From NCBI GenBank assembly GCA_002256985.1, contig NCGO01000004.1, forward strand, positions 235,068-299,067: a stretch of DNA of 64,000 nt, given 5' to 3'. The stretch is from Novosphingobium sp. 28-62-57 (GTDB taxonomy: Bacteria; Pseudomonadota; Alphaproteobacteria; Sphingomonadales; Sphingomonadaceae). The position numbers were made by a program, and so were the translations under genes. A model generated the notes under the pieces. The model was not told where the DNA came from. It ran no database searches and saw only the letters and a list, made by a program, of their open reading frames with translations. Positions 26,559 to 36,090 of this stretch are shown here, piece after piece (the stretch's first letter is position 1; every line of letters begins with the position of its first letter).

Positions 26559-27740
26559 ATGCACGATGATCAGCGCCAACGCTTGCTGGAACCGCTGGCC
26601 TATCATCGCGATGTCGTGGCCTATCTGAATCAACACGAACGCCATGCCTGGGAATGGTCCGCTTCCGGCGCGCAAGCGCAAGAGGCCGATGAGGTGCGCG
26701 AGACCATGCTGCGTGGCACTTATCGGCTTGAACCGGCTGGCCACGCCGCGGTGTTCGAAGCCTGCCAGACCGCGATGGCACGGCTTGGCATCGCAGCGCC
26801 GTGCACTCTCTATCAGGCCAACGATGGCAGCATGAACGCCTCGCTCGTCTACGTTCCAGGCGAAATTCACCTCGTATTCTTCGGCCCCATTCTGGAAAAG
26901 CTTGGGCCTGAAGAACTGCTGGCGCTGATGGGTCACGAGTTGTCGCACTATCTGCTGTGGTCGATGGGGGAGGGCGATCACTACCGCGCCAGCCGCCTGT
27001 TCGATCATGCACTGTCCTACCCCGATGCCAAGCCCTCGCACCGCGAAACCGCTCGGCTGTTGAGCCTCAATACCGAACTCTTCGCCGATCGCGGCGCTGC
27101 CATCGCAGCAGGCGCGATGGAGCCTGCGGTCGCCGTGCTGGTCAAAGTGATGACTGGCCTTACCACTGTCGATCCGCAAGCCTATCTGCGCCAAGCGCAA
27201 GAGGCCGAGGCCAAGGGCGGCAAATCGCAAGGGCAATCGCACCCCGAAATCTACCTGCGCGCCCGCGCTCTGCAATTGTGGTGGGAGGAAAGCCCCGATC
27301 TGGCAGACTGGCTGGACCGGCACTTGCAAGGGCCGCTGTCGATTGAATCGCTCGATCTGATGGGGCAGGTGCGCCTGACCCGGCTGACCCGCGCGTTCCT
27401 TGCCCGCTTCATCGTCGATATCGCAGGCGGCAGCAACGAGATCGTCACGCAAGTGCGCGCGGTATTCCCCGACTTTGGGCAGGAGGAAGAAGCCCGGATT
27501 ACCCTTGCCGAGATCGGCATTGAGCGGATTGACGATGCCACGCGTGATTACTTCGTGGCGCTGATGTTCGATCTGGCCATGGCAGACCCGGACGCGACCG
27601 ATATGGTCATGCTTGCCGCCGCCAAGACCGCCGCTGAAATCGGCGCGACCGAACGGCTGACAGGCGCGCTGCGGCGCGACCTCAAATGGACCAAGGCGCG
27701 CACCGACAAACTGGTGGCAAAGGCGGCAAAGGCAGCATGA
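26559..27740 (+). CDS. Soluble M48-like zinc metallopeptidase
   Basis: The protein has 393 residues, without signal peptide or membrane helices. The zinc motif is MGHELSHYLL (HExxH near residue 129) and the third ligand is probably the Glu of TELFADRGAA (near 172), as in M48 peptidases. The C-terminal half is helical and shows no known domain (a tellurite-resistance TerB-like helical bundle is conceivable but unproven). Its stop overlaps the start of the giant helicase (ATGA), so the two are translationally coupled and presumably act together. Cytosolic placement and coupling to a nucleic-acid enzyme are unlike HtpX or Oma1. Confidence 0.82.
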   Translation: MHDDQRQRLLEPLAYHRDVVAYLNQHERHAWEWSASGAQAQEADEVRETMLRGTYRLEPAGHAAVFEACQTAMARLGIAAPCTLYQANDGSMNASLVYVPGEIHLVFFGPILEKLGPEELLALMGHELSHYLLWSMGEGDHYRASRLFDHALSYPDAKPSHRETARLLSLNTELFADRGAAIAAGAMEPAVAVLVKVMTGLTTVDPQAYLRQAQEAEAKGGKSQGQSHPEIYLRARALQLWWEESPDLADWLDRHLQGPLSIESLDLMGQVRLTRLTRAFLARFIVDIAGGSNEIVTQVRAVFPDFGQEEEARITLAEIGIERIDDATRDYFVALMFDLAMADPDATDMVMLAAAKTAAEIGATERLTGALRRDLKWTKARTDKLVAKAAKAA

Positions 27741-30700
27741 CCGACGATAGCGCCCACAGCCCTCAAGCTACCGCCGCCACCGCGAACCGCCTGTTACGGG
27801 CGGTGCTGGAAGACCAGAAGCTCCTGCCCGCCGATGATCTGGTCCATACTATGCTGGGCCTGATGCGGCAAGTGGCAGCCCTGCACGCGCAGGGCCGCGT
27901 CGCCCGGATCGCGCTCGATTCCGTGGTGGAACTGGACGACGGCCAACTGGCCCTGATTGACCCTGCAGGCATCGCCCCTGCGGCCAATCTCAAGGCCATC
28001 CGTGAAGTGCAGCCCCACGCCTCCAGTGCGCTCAAACTTGTTGGCAATTACCGCGTCACGCAAGATGAGGAACGCGGGACCAAGGTTGATGACCTCTCGG
28101 TGCTGGGCGATGATGAGGTCACGATCACCGGCCCCGTCTACATCACCCGGCTGCGCAACTGGGAGCTGGAGCTGGGCCATCACGATGAAATCACTGATGT
28201 TTTCCAGCTGGGCATGGTCATGGCCGCGCTCGCCTGCGGGCTTGATCCGGCCGAGTTTGACGATGTCGAACGCTTCTCGCTCAACCGCGACAATCTGTTC
28301 GCCATCGCCCCCCGGCTCCACCCGGTCATCGCCTCGCTGATCCTCGAAGCGACAGAACTCAATCGCCATGACCGCGCCACCAGCGTCGCTGAACTGGCGC
28401 GCAGGCTCGATACCTGGCGCGATCAGCCGGTCGGGATCGAAGTGCAGCGTGTGCTGGCTCAGGCACAAGGCGTGCCCGGCCGCCGCACCGCCGTGCTGGC
28501 CCATCTGCGCGATCGCTTGTTCGATCTGTCACGCCGCAACCGGCTGATCCACTTTCGCGCAACGCAAAGCTCGATCAACTTCACCGATGCCAGCATCCCG
28601 CTCGTCATGCGCATCGAAAGCATCCGAGCCGACGCGCTGTGCACGTGGAAAGGCATGTTTGCCTCAAATCTGCTGGGCGGCAAGCCCGTGCCGCTCAACC
28701 ACTGGCTGCGCTTTGAAGATCAGCCGCAGATCCCCTCGCAGCTTGACCGGATCATTCAGGAAAACGTCCGCAACCGTAACGAATACGGCTTTTCCAGCCT
28801 GCGCCTGACAGTCGCCTTCCTGCACTGGCACAACTTGCGCGAAGCGCCCGAGGAACGCATCAGTTCGCCCCTGCTGTGGCTGCCGGTGGAAGTCATCCGG
28901 CGCAAGGGCGTGCGCGATCAGTATGTGATGACCTGCAAGGGCTCGGTCGCCGAATTCAATCCTGCCCTGCGCCACATGCTGCGCCAGCTTTACGCCATCG
29001 AACTGCCCGAAACGGTCGACCTTGCCGAAACCCCGATCGAGGCGATCCACGAAGCGATCCGCACCCAAATCCACGCCAGCGAACCCGGCGTGCGGCTGGA
29101 CTTGCAGGAACGCCCAGCCATCCGCCTGATCCTTCAGCGCGCGATCCAGCGGGTCAACCACTTCAACCGCCGCCGTTCGGGCCGCAAGGAAACGATCAGC
29201 GCCAAGGCCGATTTCAACTACGCTCGCGATGATTATCGCCCGCTGGGCCTCGCGCTGTTCCAAAAGTTCGTAAAGCCCGATCCCCTGCCGCAACGGCTTG
29301 CCGCAGGCGGTGGTTCGGGGCCGAAGCAGCAGTTCGCCGTCGCCCAGACCGAAGCCTTGGCCTATGGCAAGGCCGGGGGTGAGGGGCACAAGTTTGCGTG
29401 GGACATCGATCTCACGCAAGTCACGTTGGCCAATTTCAACTACCAAAAGATGTCGCTCGTGCGCGATTACAACGCGCTGATCGATACGACCGTGACGCAG
29501 CCAGCCTTCGATCAAGTGTTCTCCATCGATCCGCGCTCTTTTGCCAGCGATGCCCCGCCGCCGATCCCGCCTGCGGAACAATGGGGCGTGGTGCCCAGCG
29601 ACGCCACGCAGGATCAGGCGGTGGCCTTTGCCCGCAGCGGACGCAGCTTCATCATTCAGGGGCCGCCGGGCACCGGCAAATCGCAGACGATCACCAATCT
29701 GATCGCCGACTTTGCGGGCCAAGGCAAACGCGTGCTCTTCGTCTGCGAAAAGCGCGCCGCGCTCGATGTGGTGTTCCACCGGCTGGGGCAGGCGGGCCTC
29801 GATGGCCTTGCCACGATCATCCACGATTCGCAGGACGACAAAAAGGCCTTCATCGCCGATCTGCGCGATCACTATGAACGCTGGGGCCGCACTGCTGACG
29901 GGCTGGAAGATGCCATCGCCACCCGCGCACAGACCGTGGCCACGCTGCAGGACCAACTATCGCAAATCGCCGCGTTCGAAAAGGCCGTGGGCCACACGGC
30001 CAGCGATGGCGAACATCCCTTGCGCGATTTGGTGCGCCGCGCCGCCGCTTTGCCCGCTGTGCCTCCCGGCATAGGCATCGCCGCGCGTGAGGCTTTGCCT
30101 GCCGTCGCCCTTTGGGACCGCCATCGCGATATGGCCGCGCGCGTGTTCCGCGCGATGCACGAGATTGTCGGCACGCCCAGCCTTGCCGCCCATCCGCTGG
30201 CCCGCCTGAACGGACAGGTCCTGCGCGAAGACCGTCCCTACGCCAACATTTCCGCCGCGGCTGACAGTGCCGAAGCGCACCTGCAACGCCTTGATCCGCT
30301 GCTGGAAGACACCGCGCTGCCGCTGACCGGCAACACCACGCTTGTAGAAGCAATGGCGCTGGCCGAATGCGCCGAACGCATGGTCGCCACCGGTCTTGCC
30401 CGCACCCCCGGCCTGCTCGATCCACTCTCGCCGGATTCACGAGCCCTGCAGGCTGATCTTGCAAACCTCGCCACGCTGAAAGGCGCCGAAGTCATCGCCG
30501 CCAGCGCCGCGCAAGGCTGGCACGATCCGCTCGACCCGGCAGACACCGCCGCCGCGCTCGAACTGGCGCGGGCCAAGGAGGGCTCGTTCCTCGCCTTCCT
30601 CAGCGGCCCATGGCGCGCGCTGAAAGCCACGGTGCAGGCCCGCTATGATTTCGCCTCGCACGCGGTGAAGCCCAAAGTCGCTGCGGTGCTTGAACTCCTG

Positions 30701-33214
30701 TCTGCGCTCCACGAAGCCCGCGCGAAACGCACTGCCGCCAGTGCCTCGCTCGAACAGCGGCTTGGCACGCCCGATCTGGCCGCATTGCTGGACTTGCGTT
30801 CGCAACTGGCTGACACCGCACAAGGCAATGCCCAGCAGCCGCTGCTAGCGCTGGCCCGGTCCGCTTATGGAGCCACCGCGCTGGCCCGCACCGCCCAAGC
30901 CGCCCCCACATTGCGCGCGCTGGAGCAGACGCTTGCGCCCGTAGTGCAAAGCCCAGGCGCAATGTCGCTCGATGCCTTGGCCGAATGGCTGCGCGACTTG
31001 CGCGAGAGCCTTGATGATCTGCCCGATCTCCTGCCGCACCTTGCCGAAGTCCACGCCGCCGATCCAGCGGTCGCGGCCATGCTCACCACGCTGCCCATGC
31101 CGCTTCCGGCCATCGAAGCTTTGGTGGTGGACGAAGCCATCGCTCGGCGGGAACGCGCCAACCCCGATATCCGCCGCTTCGATATCGACCGCCTGATTGC
31201 CATCTCCCGCCGCGCCGCTGCTGCGCGCGATCTGCTGCGCGATCAGAACTCGGTCGCCATCCGCGCCAACTTGCACCGCAAATTCCGCGACAATGTGCGC
31301 AAGTCCGAAACCTCGGTCACCCAGCTCGACAGCGCCGGTCGTGCCTTCAAAAAGGTCTACGCCACCGGGCGGCGCGAGCTGGAGCACGAATTCGGCAAAT
31401 CGATGCGCTACAAATCCATCCGCGAACTGGCGAGTGGTGACACGGGCCGCGTGGTCAACGATCTGAAGCCCGTCTGGCTGATGAGCCCGCTGTCCGTATC
31501 CGATACCCTGCCGCTGGAACCCGATCTGTTCGACGTGGTGATCTTCGACGAAGCCAGCCAGATCCCCACCGAAGACGCCGTGCCCGCGCTGTGCCGCTCG
31601 CGCCAGGTCGTGATCGTGGGCGATGAAATGCAATTGCCGCCCACCAGCTTCTTCTCCTCCGCGCAATCGGAAGAGGACATGGAGGTGACCGCCGAGGAGG
31701 ATGGTGAGCGCGTGTCCATCGTGCTTGATGCCGATAGCCTGCTCAGCCAGGCCGCGCGCAATCTGCCCGCCACGCTGCTGGCATGGCATTACCGCAGCCG
31801 CTTCGAAGCGCTGATCAGCTTTTCCAACGCAGCGTTCTATGCGGGTGAACTGGTGACGATCCCGGACCGCTCCTTGCGCCAGCGCCATGATGGTGCGCAG
31901 CCCGTGCAATCGGTCAGCGAGGAAGCATGGGCAACCGGGGTTGACCGCCTGCTGTCCGCGCCCATCACCACGCACCGCATGGCCGATGGCGTCTATGATC
32001 GCCGCGCCAACCTGCCCGAGGCGCGCTATATCGCCGGGCTGGTGCGCGAATTGCTGGCCCGCAAGTCTGGCCAGAGCATCGGCATCGTCGCCTTTTCCGA
32101 AGCGCAACAGTCCGAAATCGAAGACGCGCTGGAACGGCTCGCCGCGCAGGACGAGGCCTTTGCCGCAGCGCTGACGCGCGAGGTGGAGCGCGAGGACGAT
32201 GGCCAGTTCAACGGCCTGTTCGTCAAGAATCTGGAGAACGTGCAGGGCGACGAACGCGACATCATCCTGATGAGCGTCTGCTACGCGCCCGGCCCCGAAG
32301 GGCGCATGGCGATGAACTTCGGCCCGATCAACCAGCGCGGCGGGGAAAAGCGGCTTAACGTGATCTTCAGCCGCGCCCGCCTGCACATGGCCATCGTCTC
32401 GTCGATCCCGCCCGAGGCGATTACCAACATCCACAACGATGGCGCCCGCGCGCTGCGCAGCTTCCTCGCCTTTGCCGAAGCGCAATCGGCAGGCGCGCAG
32501 GACAATGCGCAGGCCGTGCTGGCCACGCTCAACCCCGATGCCGCGCGCACGTTTGATGCCGCGCTGCCGCCCGATCCGGTGCGCAGCGCCATGGCGCAGG
32601 CCTTGCGCGCCAAGGGGCACGAGGTGCACGAACATGTCGGCGGCGCCAGTTTCCGCTGCGATCTGGCCATCGTTGATCCCGCAGGCGGCGGCTATGCGCT
32701 GGGCGTGCTGCTCGATCGTGCGGCCACCGCCGATACCGCCATCGAAGAACGCTTCGTCTTCCGCCCCTGCATCCTGCGCGCCTTTGGTTGGCGCGTGATC
32801 GATGTCCCGGCCAGCAGCTGGCTGCGCGCCAAATCGGCCGTGATCGAACGCATCGAACAGGAACTGCAGCGCTCAAGCTGGGACCTCGCCACCGCCAGCC
32901 TCCCGCCCGCGCCGGAACTGGCCCCCACGCCCGATCCGCTGGCACCCACCCCCGAAGCCAGCGATAGCGCGAACCCTGCAGACGCAGAGCCCGCGCCCGA
33001 AAGCAGCCTGACCGAATACCGCCTCGTCGCCGGAGCCTCGAACAAGTTCTGGCGTGTGGGCGTCGAAGGCAACAACCTGATCGTCGAATTCGGCCGCGTC
33101 GGCACCAAGGGCCAACGCATGGTCAAAACCTTCGAAGACCCAGACCGCGCCCGCCGCGAAGCCAACAAGCTGACGCTGGAAAAGACTGGGAAGGGCTATA
33201 CCGAACATGGGTAG
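27737..33214 (+). CDS. Giant multidomain helicase: kinase C-lobe-like segment, DUF4011, split SF1 helicase, nuclease-like domain, WGR
   Basis: The protein has 1825 residues from the ATG overlapping the peptidase stop; an upstream start at 27686 is less likely. Residues 30-228 resemble a Ser/Thr-kinase C-lobe: ALHAQGRVARIALD at the catalytic loop without the HRD aspartate, IDP for DFG, DVFQLGMVM for subdomain IX. The glycine loop and VAIK lysine are absent. DUF4011 starts near 255 (LRDRLFDLSRRNRLIHFR). Walker A GPPGTGKS is at 642-649 and DEAS at 1271-1274, separated by a 620-residue insert; later motifs are WHYRSRFEALI, NVQGDERDIILMS and RLNVIFSRAR. A Vsr/MTES_1575-like domain (about 1610-1715, CDLAIVDP then LGVLLD) appears to lack catalytic residues. 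A C-terminal WGR-type domain (about 1755-1825) reads FGRVGTKGQ. ATP-dependent RNA or DNA remodelling is likely; defence or repair is inference. Confidence 0.88.
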   Translation: MTDDSAHSPQATAATANRLLRAVLEDQKLLPADDLVHTMLGLMRQVAALHAQGRVARIALDSVVELDDGQLALIDPAGIAPAANLKAIREVQPHASSALKLVGNYRVTQDEERGTKVDDLSVLGDDEVTITGPVYITRLRNWELELGHHDEITDVFQLGMVMAALACGLDPAEFDDVERFSLNRDNLFAIAPRLHPVIASLILEATELNRHDRATSVAELARRLDTWRDQPVGIEVQRVLAQAQGVPGRRTAVLAHLRDRLFDLSRRNRLIHFRATQSSINFTDASIPLVMRIESIRADALCTWKGMFASNLLGGKPVPLNHWLRFEDQPQIPSQLDRIIQENVRNRNEYGFSSLRLTVAFLHWHNLREAPEERISSPLLWLPVEVIRRKGVRDQYVMTCKGSVAEFNPALRHMLRQLYAIELPETVDLAETPIEAIHEAIRTQIHASEPGVRLDLQERPAIRLILQRAIQRVNHFNRRRSGRKETISAKADFNYARDDYRPLGLALFQKFVKPDPLPQRLAAGGGSGPKQQFAVAQTEALAYGKAGGEGHKFAWDIDLTQVTLANFNYQKMSLVRDYNALIDTTVTQPAFDQVFSIDPRSFASDAPPPIPPAEQWGVVPSDATQDQAVAFARSGRSFIIQGPPGTGKSQTITNLIADFAGQGKRVLFVCEKRAALDVVFHRLGQAGLDGLATIIHDSQDDKKAFIADLRDHYERWGRTADGLEDAIATRAQTVATLQDQLSQIAAFEKAVGHTASDGEHPLRDLVRRAAALPAVPPGIGIAAREALPAVALWDRHRDMAARVFRAMHEIVGTPSLAAHPLARLNGQVLREDRPYANISAAADSAEAHLQRLDPLLEDTALPLTGNTTLVEAMALAECAERMVATGLARTPGLLDPLSPDSRALQADLANLATLKGAEVIAASAAQGWHDPLDPADTAAALELARAKEGSFLAFLSGPWRALKATVQARYDFASHAVKPKVAAVLELLSALHEARAKRTAASASLEQRLGTPDLAALLDLRSQLADTAQGNAQQPLLALARSAYGATALARTAQAAPTLRALEQTLAPVVQSPGAMSLDALAEWLRDLRESLDDLPDLLPHLAEVHAADPAVAAMLTTLPMPLPAIEALVVDEAIARRERANPDIRRFDIDRLIAISRRAAAARDLLRDQNSVAIRANLHRKFRDNVRKSETSVTQLDSAGRAFKKVYATGRRELEHEFGKSMRYKSIRELASGDTGRVVNDLKPVWLMSPLSVSDTLPLEPDLFDVVIFDEASQIPTEDAVPALCRSRQVVIVGDEMQLPPTSFFSSAQSEEDMEVTAEEDGERVSIVLDADSLLSQAARNLPATLLAWHYRSRFEALISFSNAAFYAGELVTIPDRSLRQRHDGAQPVQSVSEEAWATGVDRLLSAPITTHRMADGVYDRRANLPEARYIAGLVRELLARKSGQSIGIVAFSEAQQSEIEDALERLAAQDEAFAAALTREVEREDDGQFNGLFVKNLENVQGDERDIILMSVCYAPGPEGRMAMNFGPINQRGGEKRLNVIFSRARLHMAIVSSIPPEAITNIHNDGARALRSFLAFAEAQSAGAQDNAQAVLATLNPDAARTFDAALPPDPVRSAMAQALRAKGHEVHEHVGGASFRCDLAIVDPAGGGYALGVLLDRAATADTAIEERFVFRPCILRAFGWRVIDVPASSWLRAKSAVIERIEQELQRSSWDLATASLPPAPELAPTPDPLAPTPEASDSANPADAEPAPESSLTEYRLVAGASNKFWRVGVEGNNLIVEFGRVGTKGQRMVKTFEDPDRARREANKLTLEKTGKGYTEHG

Positions 33215-33272
33215 GCGGCGTGGACGCAGGTAAACCGACGTTGGAAAGCCGCCCCCTGAAACCACCCGTACT

Positions 33273-33338
33273 CCCGTTCGTGTCGAGCGAAGTCGAGACA
33301 CACAGCGCGGTGTCTCGACTTCGCTCGACACGAACGGG
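33273..33338. repeat. REP-like palindromic element, copy 1
   Basis: Two perfectly complementary 29-nt arms (33273-33301 and 33310-33338) enclose an 8-nt loop. The arm contains GTGTCGAGCGAAGTCGAGAC, itself an imperfect palindrome. A near-identical element is at 36574-36639, differing only in the outermost bases and loop. It follows the helicase gene and may also terminate transcription from either side. Confidence 0.85.
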
Positions 33339-33394
33339 ACTTACTGTGAAGTGATCCTTACCCAGCGAAGCCAGCGCCCCGAAAGGCAGCCAAG

Positions 33395-33413
33395 CCCCGT
33401 GTCGAGCACGGGG
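33395..33413. repeat. Short hairpin CCCCGTG-N5-CACGGGG, copy 1
   Basis: A 7-bp GC-rich stem within a longer stretch that recurs at 35980-35998 with one change (TCGAG versus TCAAG in the loop; flanks AAG and CGAC shared). It is probably another dispersed intergenic hairpin family. Confidence 0.6.
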
Positions 33414-33591
33414 CGACGAAGATGTTGGGTCTATGTTTTACGCAACATCCGCAATGGCTTCATACCCTGCCAGGCGGCTACTCGGTACAGATCACTTAGC
33501 AGCAGACGTTCGCATTCCATCGAGATCAACGGCTGATATCTGGGTTTTGTAGATTGCGGTCCAATGGCAGAAATTGGGTGGGGAGCGGCAA

Positions 33592-33972: not shown

Positions 33973-35826
33973 CTAACCCCCACCATTCAAATACTTGAAC
34001 AGCGGCGGGTTGATCGTGCAGTTGTCGATGGTCTTGGAAAGCCGCAGCACCGCCTGATCGATATCGCTGCCGCCCTTGGCGCCCCCCATCGCGATCAGCG
34101 TGGCAATCGCCGCATTTGCCACGATCGTTGACCGCATGCCTTCCTCGCCCGTCCACATATAGGTCGCCGCCGTCTGTGCCACATCGGCCAGCGCAGTGAT
34201 CGCCCGCGCGCGGTCTGGCATCAGGGGCAGCAGCCACACGGCCCCGCGCAGGAATTCCTCGTTCTCCACGCTCACCCGCATCGCGCTGGCCATCGTGTAG
34301 TAACTGCCGTGGCCTTCGATCCGCTGGTATTGCGGCTTGGTCAGCCCCAGCACGCCATTTGTCACGCGCGTGTTCTTGTAGACATGATCGTCCAGCCGGA
34401 TCAGTTGCGTATGCAGTGCGTTGCAGATCGCTTTGCCATCGCCACTGGCCAGCTTCATCGCCACCGCGCGCCCCAGCGCCACGGTCTGCCCGCCATGGCG
34501 CACCGGCCATTCGGGATGGTCCGCTTCCAGCCGGTCGATGGCCGAGGCAAAGCGCTCTCCATTGCAGACATCGGTGAAGACGCCCATGTCCAGCAGCGGA
34601 TCGTGGAACAGCGCCAGCCAATCGTGCAGCCGTGCCTCCACCGTGGCAAGGCCGATGGGCTGGCACAGCGCCAGCGCTTCCTTCTGCCACGCCGCCGTCG
34701 CCTTTGTCGCGCGGCGCTGCGTGATCAGGTGCTCCACCAGCGCGGTCCACGCCGGGTTTTCCAGATCAGCCAGCACCTCAAGCCCCGGAATCTGATCGCT
34801 CATCCAGTTATAGCGCGAATGCGCCTCGGCCAGCGCAATCGTTCCCGGCAGGCGGCGATAGGCTTGCGGATCGGCAAAGCCGCTGCGCTTGCCGTTGTGC
34901 TGGCTCAGCGCCGCAAATGGTTTGTCCACGCTGTTCCACGCGCCAAACTGCGGCGCAACATCCCCGCACGCGGGCCACGTTTCGGCAAAGGCGGTGGCAT
35001 CGCGCATCCATGCGGGCTTGGTGCTGCCCTTGGTGTCGGCGCGGATGGCTTCGAGTGCCACGGTCACCTCGGCAAACAGATCAGCCCAGAACTGGGCGTT
35101 GGGGCGCTCTTTCGGAACAATCGCCCACGGATTGTCTGCGCCCTCGCAGCGCTGCATCAGCAAGTCCCCGCCGCTCACTTCCACGCCCGCCAGCTTCTCG
35201 ATCCGCTCGGCCCGCGCGATCATCTTCTTGGTATCGGCCTTGCGATAGGATTTGCGACCGCTGCGAATGTCGCTGGCCATCTGCGCCAGCGCCTCGCAAT
35301 CTCCGCTGGAAAGATAGGCCCCCTGCTTGATCGCGCTGCTGATCAGGCTCAATAAGGTGTCGAGGGGTTTTTCGTAGTAGGTCTTGGTGCGGAAGTCCTT
35401 GTTGCCTGTCAGCATCGTCAGTAGCGGCCCCAGATGCTCTGCCCGCACGGCAATTTCGGTCTGCCAGATGGCCTGCATCGTGTGATAGGCGATCAGCTCC
35501 TGCGGCGATTTGTCCTGAAGGAAGCCATCGTAAAGCCCGGGGCGGCCGACCATATCGACCAGCAATTCGCCCCGCTCTTCGGCTGACAGGTCTTTCAGGG
35601 CCGGTAGGCAACCTGACGCGGGATAGCGCGCATCGCGCACATGGCTTTGCGCGTGCGCAAAGTGGCGATCAAACGCAGATGTGCCCGCACTTGCGCGGCG
35701 ATTGCCGAAGATGCGGCCTGACGGCGGGGCTTCAGGCGGTGCCGCGCCGGTCTGGTCCGACTGCAGACCTTTGCGCCCAAATCCCGTCTGCCCCACGCCC
35801 TTGCGGCCAAACCCGAACAAGCCCAC
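33973..35826 (-). CDS. Uncharacterised 617-aa protein, HEAT-like, possibly related to the DUF4132/MolR group
   Basis: A GTG at 35826 with GGGGAGA upstream is preferred; the longest frame (645 aa) starts at 35910 without a ribosome site. The N-terminus has a doubled GFGRKG motif (residues 4-20) and a polar, Pro/Ala-rich linker to about residue 70. The rest is alpha-helical with Trp-rich segments. The C-terminal 100 residues (RAITALADVAQTAATYMWTG, then IVANAAIATLIAMGG and VLRLSKTIDNCTINPP) recall helical repeats of DUF4132/MolR proteins, which are often joined to WGR domains. No catalytic motif seen. It converges on the WGR helicase region, so cooperation is possible but unproven. Confidence 0.75.
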   Translation of the reverse strand: MGLFGFGRKGVGQTGFGRKGLQSDQTGAAPPEAPPSGRIFGNRRASAGTSAFDRHFAHAQSHVRDARYPASGCLPALKDLSAEERGELLVDMVGRPGLYDGFLQDKSPQELIAYHTMQAIWQTEIAVRAEHLGPLLTMLTGNKDFRTKTYYEKPLDTLLSLISSAIKQGAYLSSGDCEALAQMASDIRSGRKSYRKADTKKMIARAERIEKLAGVEVSGGDLLMQRCEGADNPWAIVPKERPNAQFWADLFAEVTVALEAIRADTKGSTKPAWMRDATAFAETWPACGDVAPQFGAWNSVDKPFAALSQHNGKRSGFADPQAYRRLPGTIALAEAHSRYNWMSDQIPGLEVLADLENPAWTALVEHLITQRRATKATAAWQKEALALCQPIGLATVEARLHDWLALFHDPLLDMGVFTDVCNGERFASAIDRLEADHPEWPVRHGGQTVALGRAVAMKLASGDGKAICNALHTQLIRLDDHVYKNTRVTNGVLGLTKPQYQRIEGHGSYYTMASAMRVSVENEEFLRGAVWLLPLMPDRARAITALADVAQTAATYMWTGEEGMRSTIVANAAIATLIAMGGAKGGSDIDQAVLRLSKTIDNCTINPPLFKYLNGGG

Positions 35827-35979
35827 GCTCTGTCTCCCCGATCCCGCCCCGTCGGATCGTCGTCGCCTTATAGGTTGGGCGAAGTTGAGAATGCTTGAAT
35901 GCCGCGCCATTCCACAAGACGTCGTCGGCCCATGCTTGACACGGGCCTTGGCTTTAATTGTCGGCCAAGGCTAGCCAAG

Positions 35980-35998
35980 CCCCGTGTCAAGCACGGGG
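35980..35998. repeat. Short hairpin CCCCGTG-N5-CACGGGG, copy 2
   Basis: The same stem as at 33395-33413, including flanking bases (AAG before, CGAC after). It lies in the divergent gap between the 617-aa protein and trmL. Confidence 0.6.
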
Positions 35999-36090
35999 CG
36001 ACTGGGAGGTGTCATGCAACTCACTTCAGCCCCAGATGACTGGGCACGAACAGACTTGCGCCAAGCGCCGCCTGCCGCCACTCAGCGCCG

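What the first reader, a model, noticed from the sequence alone, without database searches (positions are those of the whole stretch)
26559..33214. Peptidase coupled to a kinase-like/DUF4011/SF1/WGR giant: candidate defence or repair module
Seen: a soluble HExxH peptidase shares ATGA with an 1825-aa protein combining a kinase C-lobe-like segment without catalytic residues, DUF4011, a helicase split by about 620 residues, a nuclease-like domain and WGR. Known: Mokosh anti-phage systems use COG1112-type helicases with a Ser/Thr kinase domain, with a PLD nuclease as partner or fused domain. Inference: this is a related but distinct module in which an M48-like peptidase and a WGR domain replace the PLD part. 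I know of no described system with this composition.
Basis: partly seen in the sequence, partly recalled or inferred. Interest (0 to 1): 0.85.

Follow-up and report, generated by a model that had tools for sequence, protein, structure and literature searches.

The report
Mobile helicase-linked peptidase module
Two genes that stay together across many bacteria encode a protein-cutting enzyme and a giant DNA- or RNA-motor protein whose kinase-like and nuclease-like parts look inactive, which suggests the cutting enzyme is the working weapon or tool; anti-phage defence is the leading guess but is untested.

Summary
Window 26559-27740 encodes a 393-aa soluble M48-type HExxH peptidase; 27737-33214 encodes an 1825-aa protein with a kinase C-lobe, DUF4011, an SF1 helicase, a Vsr/MTES_1575-like nuclease fold and WGR. 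The genes overlap by ATGA. The pair is conserved: 36 of 37 foreign loci carry the peptidase directly upstream, and in 397 family genomes both genes have strong hits in the same 5. Flanks mostly differ, so the unit moves. New here: (1) the N-terminus models as a kinase C-lobe without N-lobe or conserved catalytic residues; (2) the nuclease's expected catalytic Glu is Leu/Ile in 38 of 38 orthologues but Glu in 12 of 13 compared relatives, leaving the peptidase as the only intact-looking effector site; (3) a third, convergent gene (33973-35910) accompanies this and nine other alphaproteobacterial copies. Against simple defence: few defence genes nearby and no near full-length copy on plasmids, phages or viral contigs. 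The giant is related to ProA and Hhe but below their cut-offs. Best reading: a helicase-gated peptidase, probably immune; rivals are crosslink repair or a regulatory peptidase.

The parts
26559..27740 (+). Soluble M48-family zinc peptidase, 393 aa; HELSH at H126-H130, third-ligand motif at E173, HPE motif at 228-230
   Evidence: no clear transmembrane stretch (19-aa hydropathy maximum 1.69)
27737..33214 (+). Giant SF1 helicase protein, 1825 aa, start overlaps the peptidase stop (ATGA)
27755..28438 (+). Kinase C-lobe-like domain (about residues 7-234), no N-lobe, no conserved HRD or DFG aspartate; GHHDEITD motif highly conserved
28514..28981 (+). DUF4011 domain (residues 260-415)
   Evidence: Pfam 1.5e-13
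29594..32401 (+). SF1 helicase core (about 620-1555), Walker A GPPGTGKS at 642-649 and DEAS at 1271-1274, with a long insertion between them
32588..32866 (+). Vsr/MTES_1575-like restriction-endonuclease fold (1618-1710) with the expected catalytic Glu replaced by Leu 1658
   Evidence: Pfam 3.7e-13; alignment
33026..33208 (+). WGR domain (1764-1824)
   Evidence: Pfam 2.7e-17; region aligned in 35 of 38 orthologues
33973..35910 (-). Third gene, 645 aa, helical protein of unknown family, convergent with the giant; beside the pair in 9 of 37 foreign loci and in the window

Best explanation
A helicase-gated peptidase module, most likely an anti-phage or anti-invader system. The giant binds and moves along nucleic acid with its SF1 motor (shown: conserved motifs; inferred: activity), helped by WGR and a nuclease fold that now only binds (inferred). 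The kinase C-lobe serves as a protein docking or switch domain (inferred). On meeting foreign or aberrant nucleic acid the giant docks or releases the co-translated M48 peptidase, which cuts phage or essential host proteins (inferred). In short, proteolysis has taken over the effector role that the C-terminal nuclease would have in ProA/Hhe-type relatives.
For: Peptidase directly upstream in 36 of 37 foreign loci, HExxH readable in 35 of these 36 (L023 is cut by the contig end); stop/start overlap of 4 nt in 22 of 38 loci and 13 nt in 11. In 397 family genomes the giant (E<=1e-100) and strong peptidase hits fall in the same 5 genomes. Peptidase and giant distances correlate at r 0.98 over 35 loci, 0 of 2000 permutations reach it (shared ancestry contributes). 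Zinc site conserved. Nuclease Glu position: Leu 37, Ile 1, Glu 0 of 38; Glu in 12 of 13 compared relatives. Helicase motifs conserved. Giant related to families that NCBIfam names as anti-phage, ProA (683 bits) and Hhe (437 bits), and to PADLOC candidate PDC-S37 (659 bits). Patchy and mobile: full-length giant in 2 of 119 genus genomes and 5 of 397 family genomes; flanks unrelated in nearly all loci; the Rhizobium rhizogenes giant is 77% identical while that of the same genus (L039) is 65%.
Against: No clear defence-island signal: of 112 neighbouring proteins scanned, 13 PADLOC models were each hit by one member only at 1e-10 (no control set run). No near-full-length copy in 72,556 plasmids or 50,697 phages, none in a pattern scan of viral contigs that finds close relatives only, and no peptidase hit on plasmids, although related giants are plasmid-borne. 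No activity is shown for any part. One of 37 loci (L032) has the giant without a recognisable peptidase. The catalytic role of the lost Glu is taken from family knowledge, not tested here; one compared relative (L088) also lacks it.
Confidence: 0.42

Rival explanations
1. DNA-protein crosslink or stalled-complex repair: the helicase unwinds and exposes a protein stuck on DNA, WGR senses the lesion or end, and the HExxH peptidase digests the adduct, as SPRTN-type proteases do with helicase help in eukaryotes (recalled).
For: HExxH peptidase plus SF1 motor plus WGR in one operon; a dead nuclease would fit a non-cutting role; few defence neighbours and no near-full-length copy on plasmids, phages or viral contigs.
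Against: Very patchy distribution (5 of 397 family genomes) and movement between genera are unusual for core repair; the giant's nearest named relatives are called anti-phage proteins; SprT similarity of the peptidase is only E 0.017.
Confidence: 0.2
2. The peptidase is a regulator, not the effector: it trims or degrades the giant, or a repressor, to keep the system quiet or to switch it on, like ShdB in Shield or CapP in CBASS.
For: Metallopeptidase regulators of defence proteins are reported: ShdB likely degrades ShdA (passages of PMC10270631); CapP degrades CapH (passage of PMC12255303). Distant kin of the peptidase show weak capP matches (4.6e-5 to 0.004). Overlapping genes could fix a ratio.
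Against: No repressor gene was recognised in the unit; the giant would then need its own effector, and its nuclease and kinase sites look dead.
Confidence: 0.2
3. A stress or protein-quality module: the peptidase works with an ATP-driven machine, here a helicase, elsewhere an Hsp70, to remove aberrant complexes such as stalled ribonucleoproteins.
For: Distant kin of the peptidase lie beside Hsp70-like and TerB genes: Pfam shows Hsp70, TerB and M48 in a row in L126 and L130 and TerB with M48 in L127; L129 and the Hsp70-like end in L127 were judged by eye only. Homology of the L130 peptidase by hhalign E 4.5e-10.
Against: The function of those operons is not known to me either; only 4 of 10 weak hits were examined; the giant resembles proteins named anti-phage rather than chaperone partners.
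Confidence: 0.12
4. The C-terminal nuclease is still active through other residues and remains the effector, the peptidase being accessory.
For: The fold is recognised by Pfam and two acidic positions persist (36 of 38 and 38 of 38).
Against: The expected Glu is absent in 38 of 38 and the YH..ARDRD-like segment of most compared relatives is not retained.
Confidence: 0.06

Closest known systems
ProA anti-phage protein (NCBIfam NF058533) and PADLOC candidate PDC-S37
   Same: SF1 helicase with the long insertion and a C-terminal nuclease-fold region; 683 and 659 bits, best stretch starting at residue 554 and reaching 1746 and 1721
   Different: Below the NF058533 cut-off of 1500 in 6 of 6 tested members; this family has a kinase C-lobe, WGR, a peptidase partner and a nuclease without the Glu. 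No paper on ProA was found.
Hhe (NCBIfam NF042953)
   Same: DUF4011 anti-phage protein by its NCBIfam name; 437 bits, best stretch 1205-1712
   Different: Cut-off 2000 not reached in 6 of 6 tested members; Hhe is a single-protein system (recalled).
Mokosh (MkoA/MkoC)
   Same: SF1 COG1112-type helicase with a kinase domain (recalled); helicase part matches MkoA at 126 bits
   Different: Here the kinase part is a C-lobe only without conserved catalytic residues, and no PLD domain was found; far weaker match than to ProA.
Hsp70-TerB-M48 gene rows
   Same: Peptidase of L130 homologous over residues 52-247, hhalign E 4.5e-10, with shared K..(S/T)G, LRQ and HP..R..AL motifs
   Different: Partners are an Hsp70-like ATPase and a TerB protein, not a helicase; no TerB similarity was found in this peptidase.
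Defence systems with metallopeptidases: Shield ShdB, CapP/CapH, RRDM M48
   Same: A zinc peptidase encoded with a defence protein (passages)
   Different: ShdB is M15-like and regulates ShdA; CapP is M78/IrrE-like (recalled); the RRDM M48 sits in an island with a type I restriction system and DarTG, and its role is not described in the passages read.

Membership tests
M48 metallopeptidase family | Pfam PF01435 above its gathering score | tested here: met
   29.1 bits against 20.3; also two orthologues, 30.4 and 23.6 bits
M48 metallopeptidase family | HExxH plus downstream Glu ligand and HP..R motif (motif roles recalled) | tested here: met
   H126, E127, H130, E173 nearly invariant and H228, P229, E230, R234 invariant in alignment A5 of 36 rows
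M48 metallopeptidase family | Proteolytic activity | not testable with these tools
   needs biochemistry
ProA anti-phage (NF058533) | Score at or above the equivalog cut-off 1500 | tested here: not met
   674.8 to 695.8 bits in 6 of 6 members tested
Hhe anti-phage (NF042953) | Score at or above the equivalog cut-off 2000 | tested here: not met
   433.8 to 478.3 bits in 6 of 6 members tested
Mokosh | Ser/Thr kinase domain with catalytic residues (definition recalled and from the finding) | tested here: not met
   C-lobe only in the model; DFG-position Asp in 10 of 38, no conserved acid at the HRD-like position
Mokosh | PLD nuclease as partner or fused domain | tested here: not met
   No PLD family in the Pfam matches of the two proteins, of the third gene or of ten window neighbours
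PDC-S37 (PADLOC candidate) | Full-length match to the PADLOC profile | tested here: inconclusive
   659 bits, best stretch covers profile 217-1349 of 1550; no cut-off given
Protein kinase fold | C-lobe fold | tested here: met
Active PD-(D/E)XK/Vsr-type nuclease | Acidic Glu of the ExD motif (role recalled) | tested here: not met
   Leu 37, Ile 1 of 38
Anti-phage defence system | Protection against phage | not testable with these tools
   needs experiment
Anti-phage defence system | Enrichment beside known defence genes | tested here: inconclusive
   13 PADLOC models, one member each, in 112 neighbours; no control set

The most novel reading that the evidence does not exclude
A defence giant in which evolution swapped the effector: the built-in nuclease and a kinase remnant have died and a co-translated M48 peptidase has become the weapon, so that a nucleic-acid-sensing helicase triggers proteolysis. 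With the Hsp70-TerB-M48 kin this would define a broader class in which one soluble M48 peptidase type is wired to different ATP-driven machines.
Probability: 0.33. Interest if true: 0.83.

Novelty: new variant of a known kind. Interest (0 to 1): 0.66.

Why it matters
Relatives of this giant keep the nuclease Glu in 12 of 13 compared proteins. A widespread branch with an apparently dead nuclease and an almost obligatory peptidase makes a clear, testable prediction that helicase sensing is coupled to protein cutting. It would add a proteolytic arm to this group of defence proteins, or reveal a bacterial helicase-protease crosslink repair pair.

Tried and rejected

Literature: ProA not found (1 paper, 20 of 171 listed, 25 of 94 listed). 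DUF4011 occurs in 3 papers of the library. Two of DUF4011, WGR and helicase: 25 of 120 papers listed, no matching system. M48 or metallopeptidase with defence terms: 23 papers, 5 papers, 25 of 1,071 listed; these led to RRDM and Shield. Searches (5 papers; 3 papers) gave nothing fitting. The library lacks most subscription papers, so absence in print is not shown.

Full report
What is there. Two overlapping ORFs, 26559-27740 (393 aa) and 27737-33214 (1825 aa), are as described. Pfam finds M48 in the first and DUF4011, AAA_11/AAA_12 helicase, MTES_1575 REase and WGR in the second. Both genes show strong codon-position bias of conservation against five orthologues each (position 3 at 0.44-0.53, position 2 at 0.85-0.89).

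Conservation. A pattern scan of genome contigs found 37 loci outside this genome: Alpha-, Beta- and Gammaproteobacteria, one Verrucomicrobia MAG and one Chitinophaga. In 36 of 37 a peptidase homologue lies directly upstream; the exception is Chitinophaga L032. HExxH is readable in 35 of the 36; L023 is cut by the contig end. L029 looks interrupted in both genes. Over the 38 loci with both genes, own locus and L039 included, the spacing is a 4-nt overlap in 22, a 13-nt overlap in 11, +3 in 2 and other overlaps in 3. In 397 family genomes the giant at E<=1e-100 occurs in 5 and the peptidase in the same 5, plus one weak hit at 2.5e-4. In 119 genus genomes 2 have the full-length giant; 13 others have only partial matches to related helicases. 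In 240 class genomes a peptidase profile finds 2 strong matches, own and G546, and 10 weak ones; the G546 copy again has the giant behind it.

Mobility. Flanking genes differ between nearly all loci; exceptions are L003/L019 and L012/L016/L037 and the third gene. The Rhizobium rhizogenes giant is 77% identical to the window while the same-genus L039 is 65%, which indicates transfer. Yet no record of 72,556 plasmids or 50,697 phages covers 80% of the giant, the 425 plasmid hits being partial (those listed are DUF3320/DUF4011 proteins); the peptidase has no plasmid hit, and a pattern scan of viral contigs gave no relative. The 25 of 106 Pfam families shown for the neighbours are mostly metabolic, transport and signalling. 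In 112 neighbours 13 PADLOC models are hit by one member each: 8 are DpdF models, the others TnsB, SngC, BrxH, PsyrT and DrmD.

Third gene. A 606-650-aa protein (773 aa as the longest ORF in L008) lies convergent behind the giant in 9 foreign loci and in the window, mostly within 25 bp, at 410 and 455 bp in L003 and L005 and 758 bp in the window. In 397 family genomes it has 4 strong hits, all in pair carriers; G458 has the pair but not this gene; 2 further hits are weak. It is a helical protein (pLDDT 76) with no recognised family. It was not found in the beta- and gammaproteobacterial flanks, nor in those of close alphaproteobacterial copies such as L010 and L031, so it is an accessory, not a fixed part. 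Some loci have short flanks (L022 none, L039 1.5 kb), so absence there is not shown.

Peptidase relatives. Of the ten weak class-level hits I fetched four. Pfam shows Hsp70, TerB and M48 in a row in L126 and L130, and TerB with M48 in L127; L129 looks alike by eye. One, L130, compared by hhalign aligns at E 4.5e-10. The other six weak hits were not examined.

Mechanism. Shown: the genes, their linkage, co-occurrence, predicted fold of the N-terminus, conservation of zinc and ATPase motifs, loss of the nuclease Glu. Inferred: nucleic-acid translocation, docking by the kinase lobe, peptidase as effector, and immunity. The inference rests on homology to ProA and Hhe, patchiness and mobility; the absence of an island and plasmid context weighs against it, so repair and regulatory rivals keep real weight.

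Comparison. Not Mokosh by the features tested, not within the ProA or Hhe cut-offs. I place it as a new variant of the DUF4011/SF1 giants. Literature: listings; passages of PMC12255303, PMC10250203 and PMC10270631. No described system with this composition turned up in those listings and passages.

Noticed in passing
window 33388-33417 and 35973-36002: A 30-nt direct repeat, 97% identical, flanks the third gene; one copy is also part of a palindrome. I take it for an interspersed repeat rather than a transposon end, untested.
   Followed up: partly
window 33272-33339: Perfect 30-nt inverted repeat with an 8-nt loop just behind the giant, a possible terminator or interspersed palindrome.
   Followed up: no
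L126 4536-8362, L129 4412-7755, L130 3461-7278: Gene rows Hsp70-like, TerB-domain protein, M48 peptidase in other alphaproteobacteria, the peptidase homologous to the window's; L129 judged by eye only.
   Followed up: partly
L089 4594-10285 (Paracoccus yeei plasmid): A DUF3320 giant overlaps a small convergent WGR-domain gene, an independent link of WGR with this giant class.
   Followed up: no
L012 398-1006, L016 7893-8537, L037 15434-16075: A thymidylate-kinase-like gene lies before the pair in two Pseudomonas loci and behind it in a third with the same further neighbours.
   Followed up: partly
L010 16863-19726 and L038 3048-6118: The same neighbouring DNA lies behind the pair in Brevundimonas and before it, inverted, in Caulobacter, hinting at repeated insertion near one spot.
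   Followed up: no
L029 8839-15458: The Pseudomonas sp. KNUC1026 copy looks interrupted in the peptidase and in the giant.
   Followed up: no
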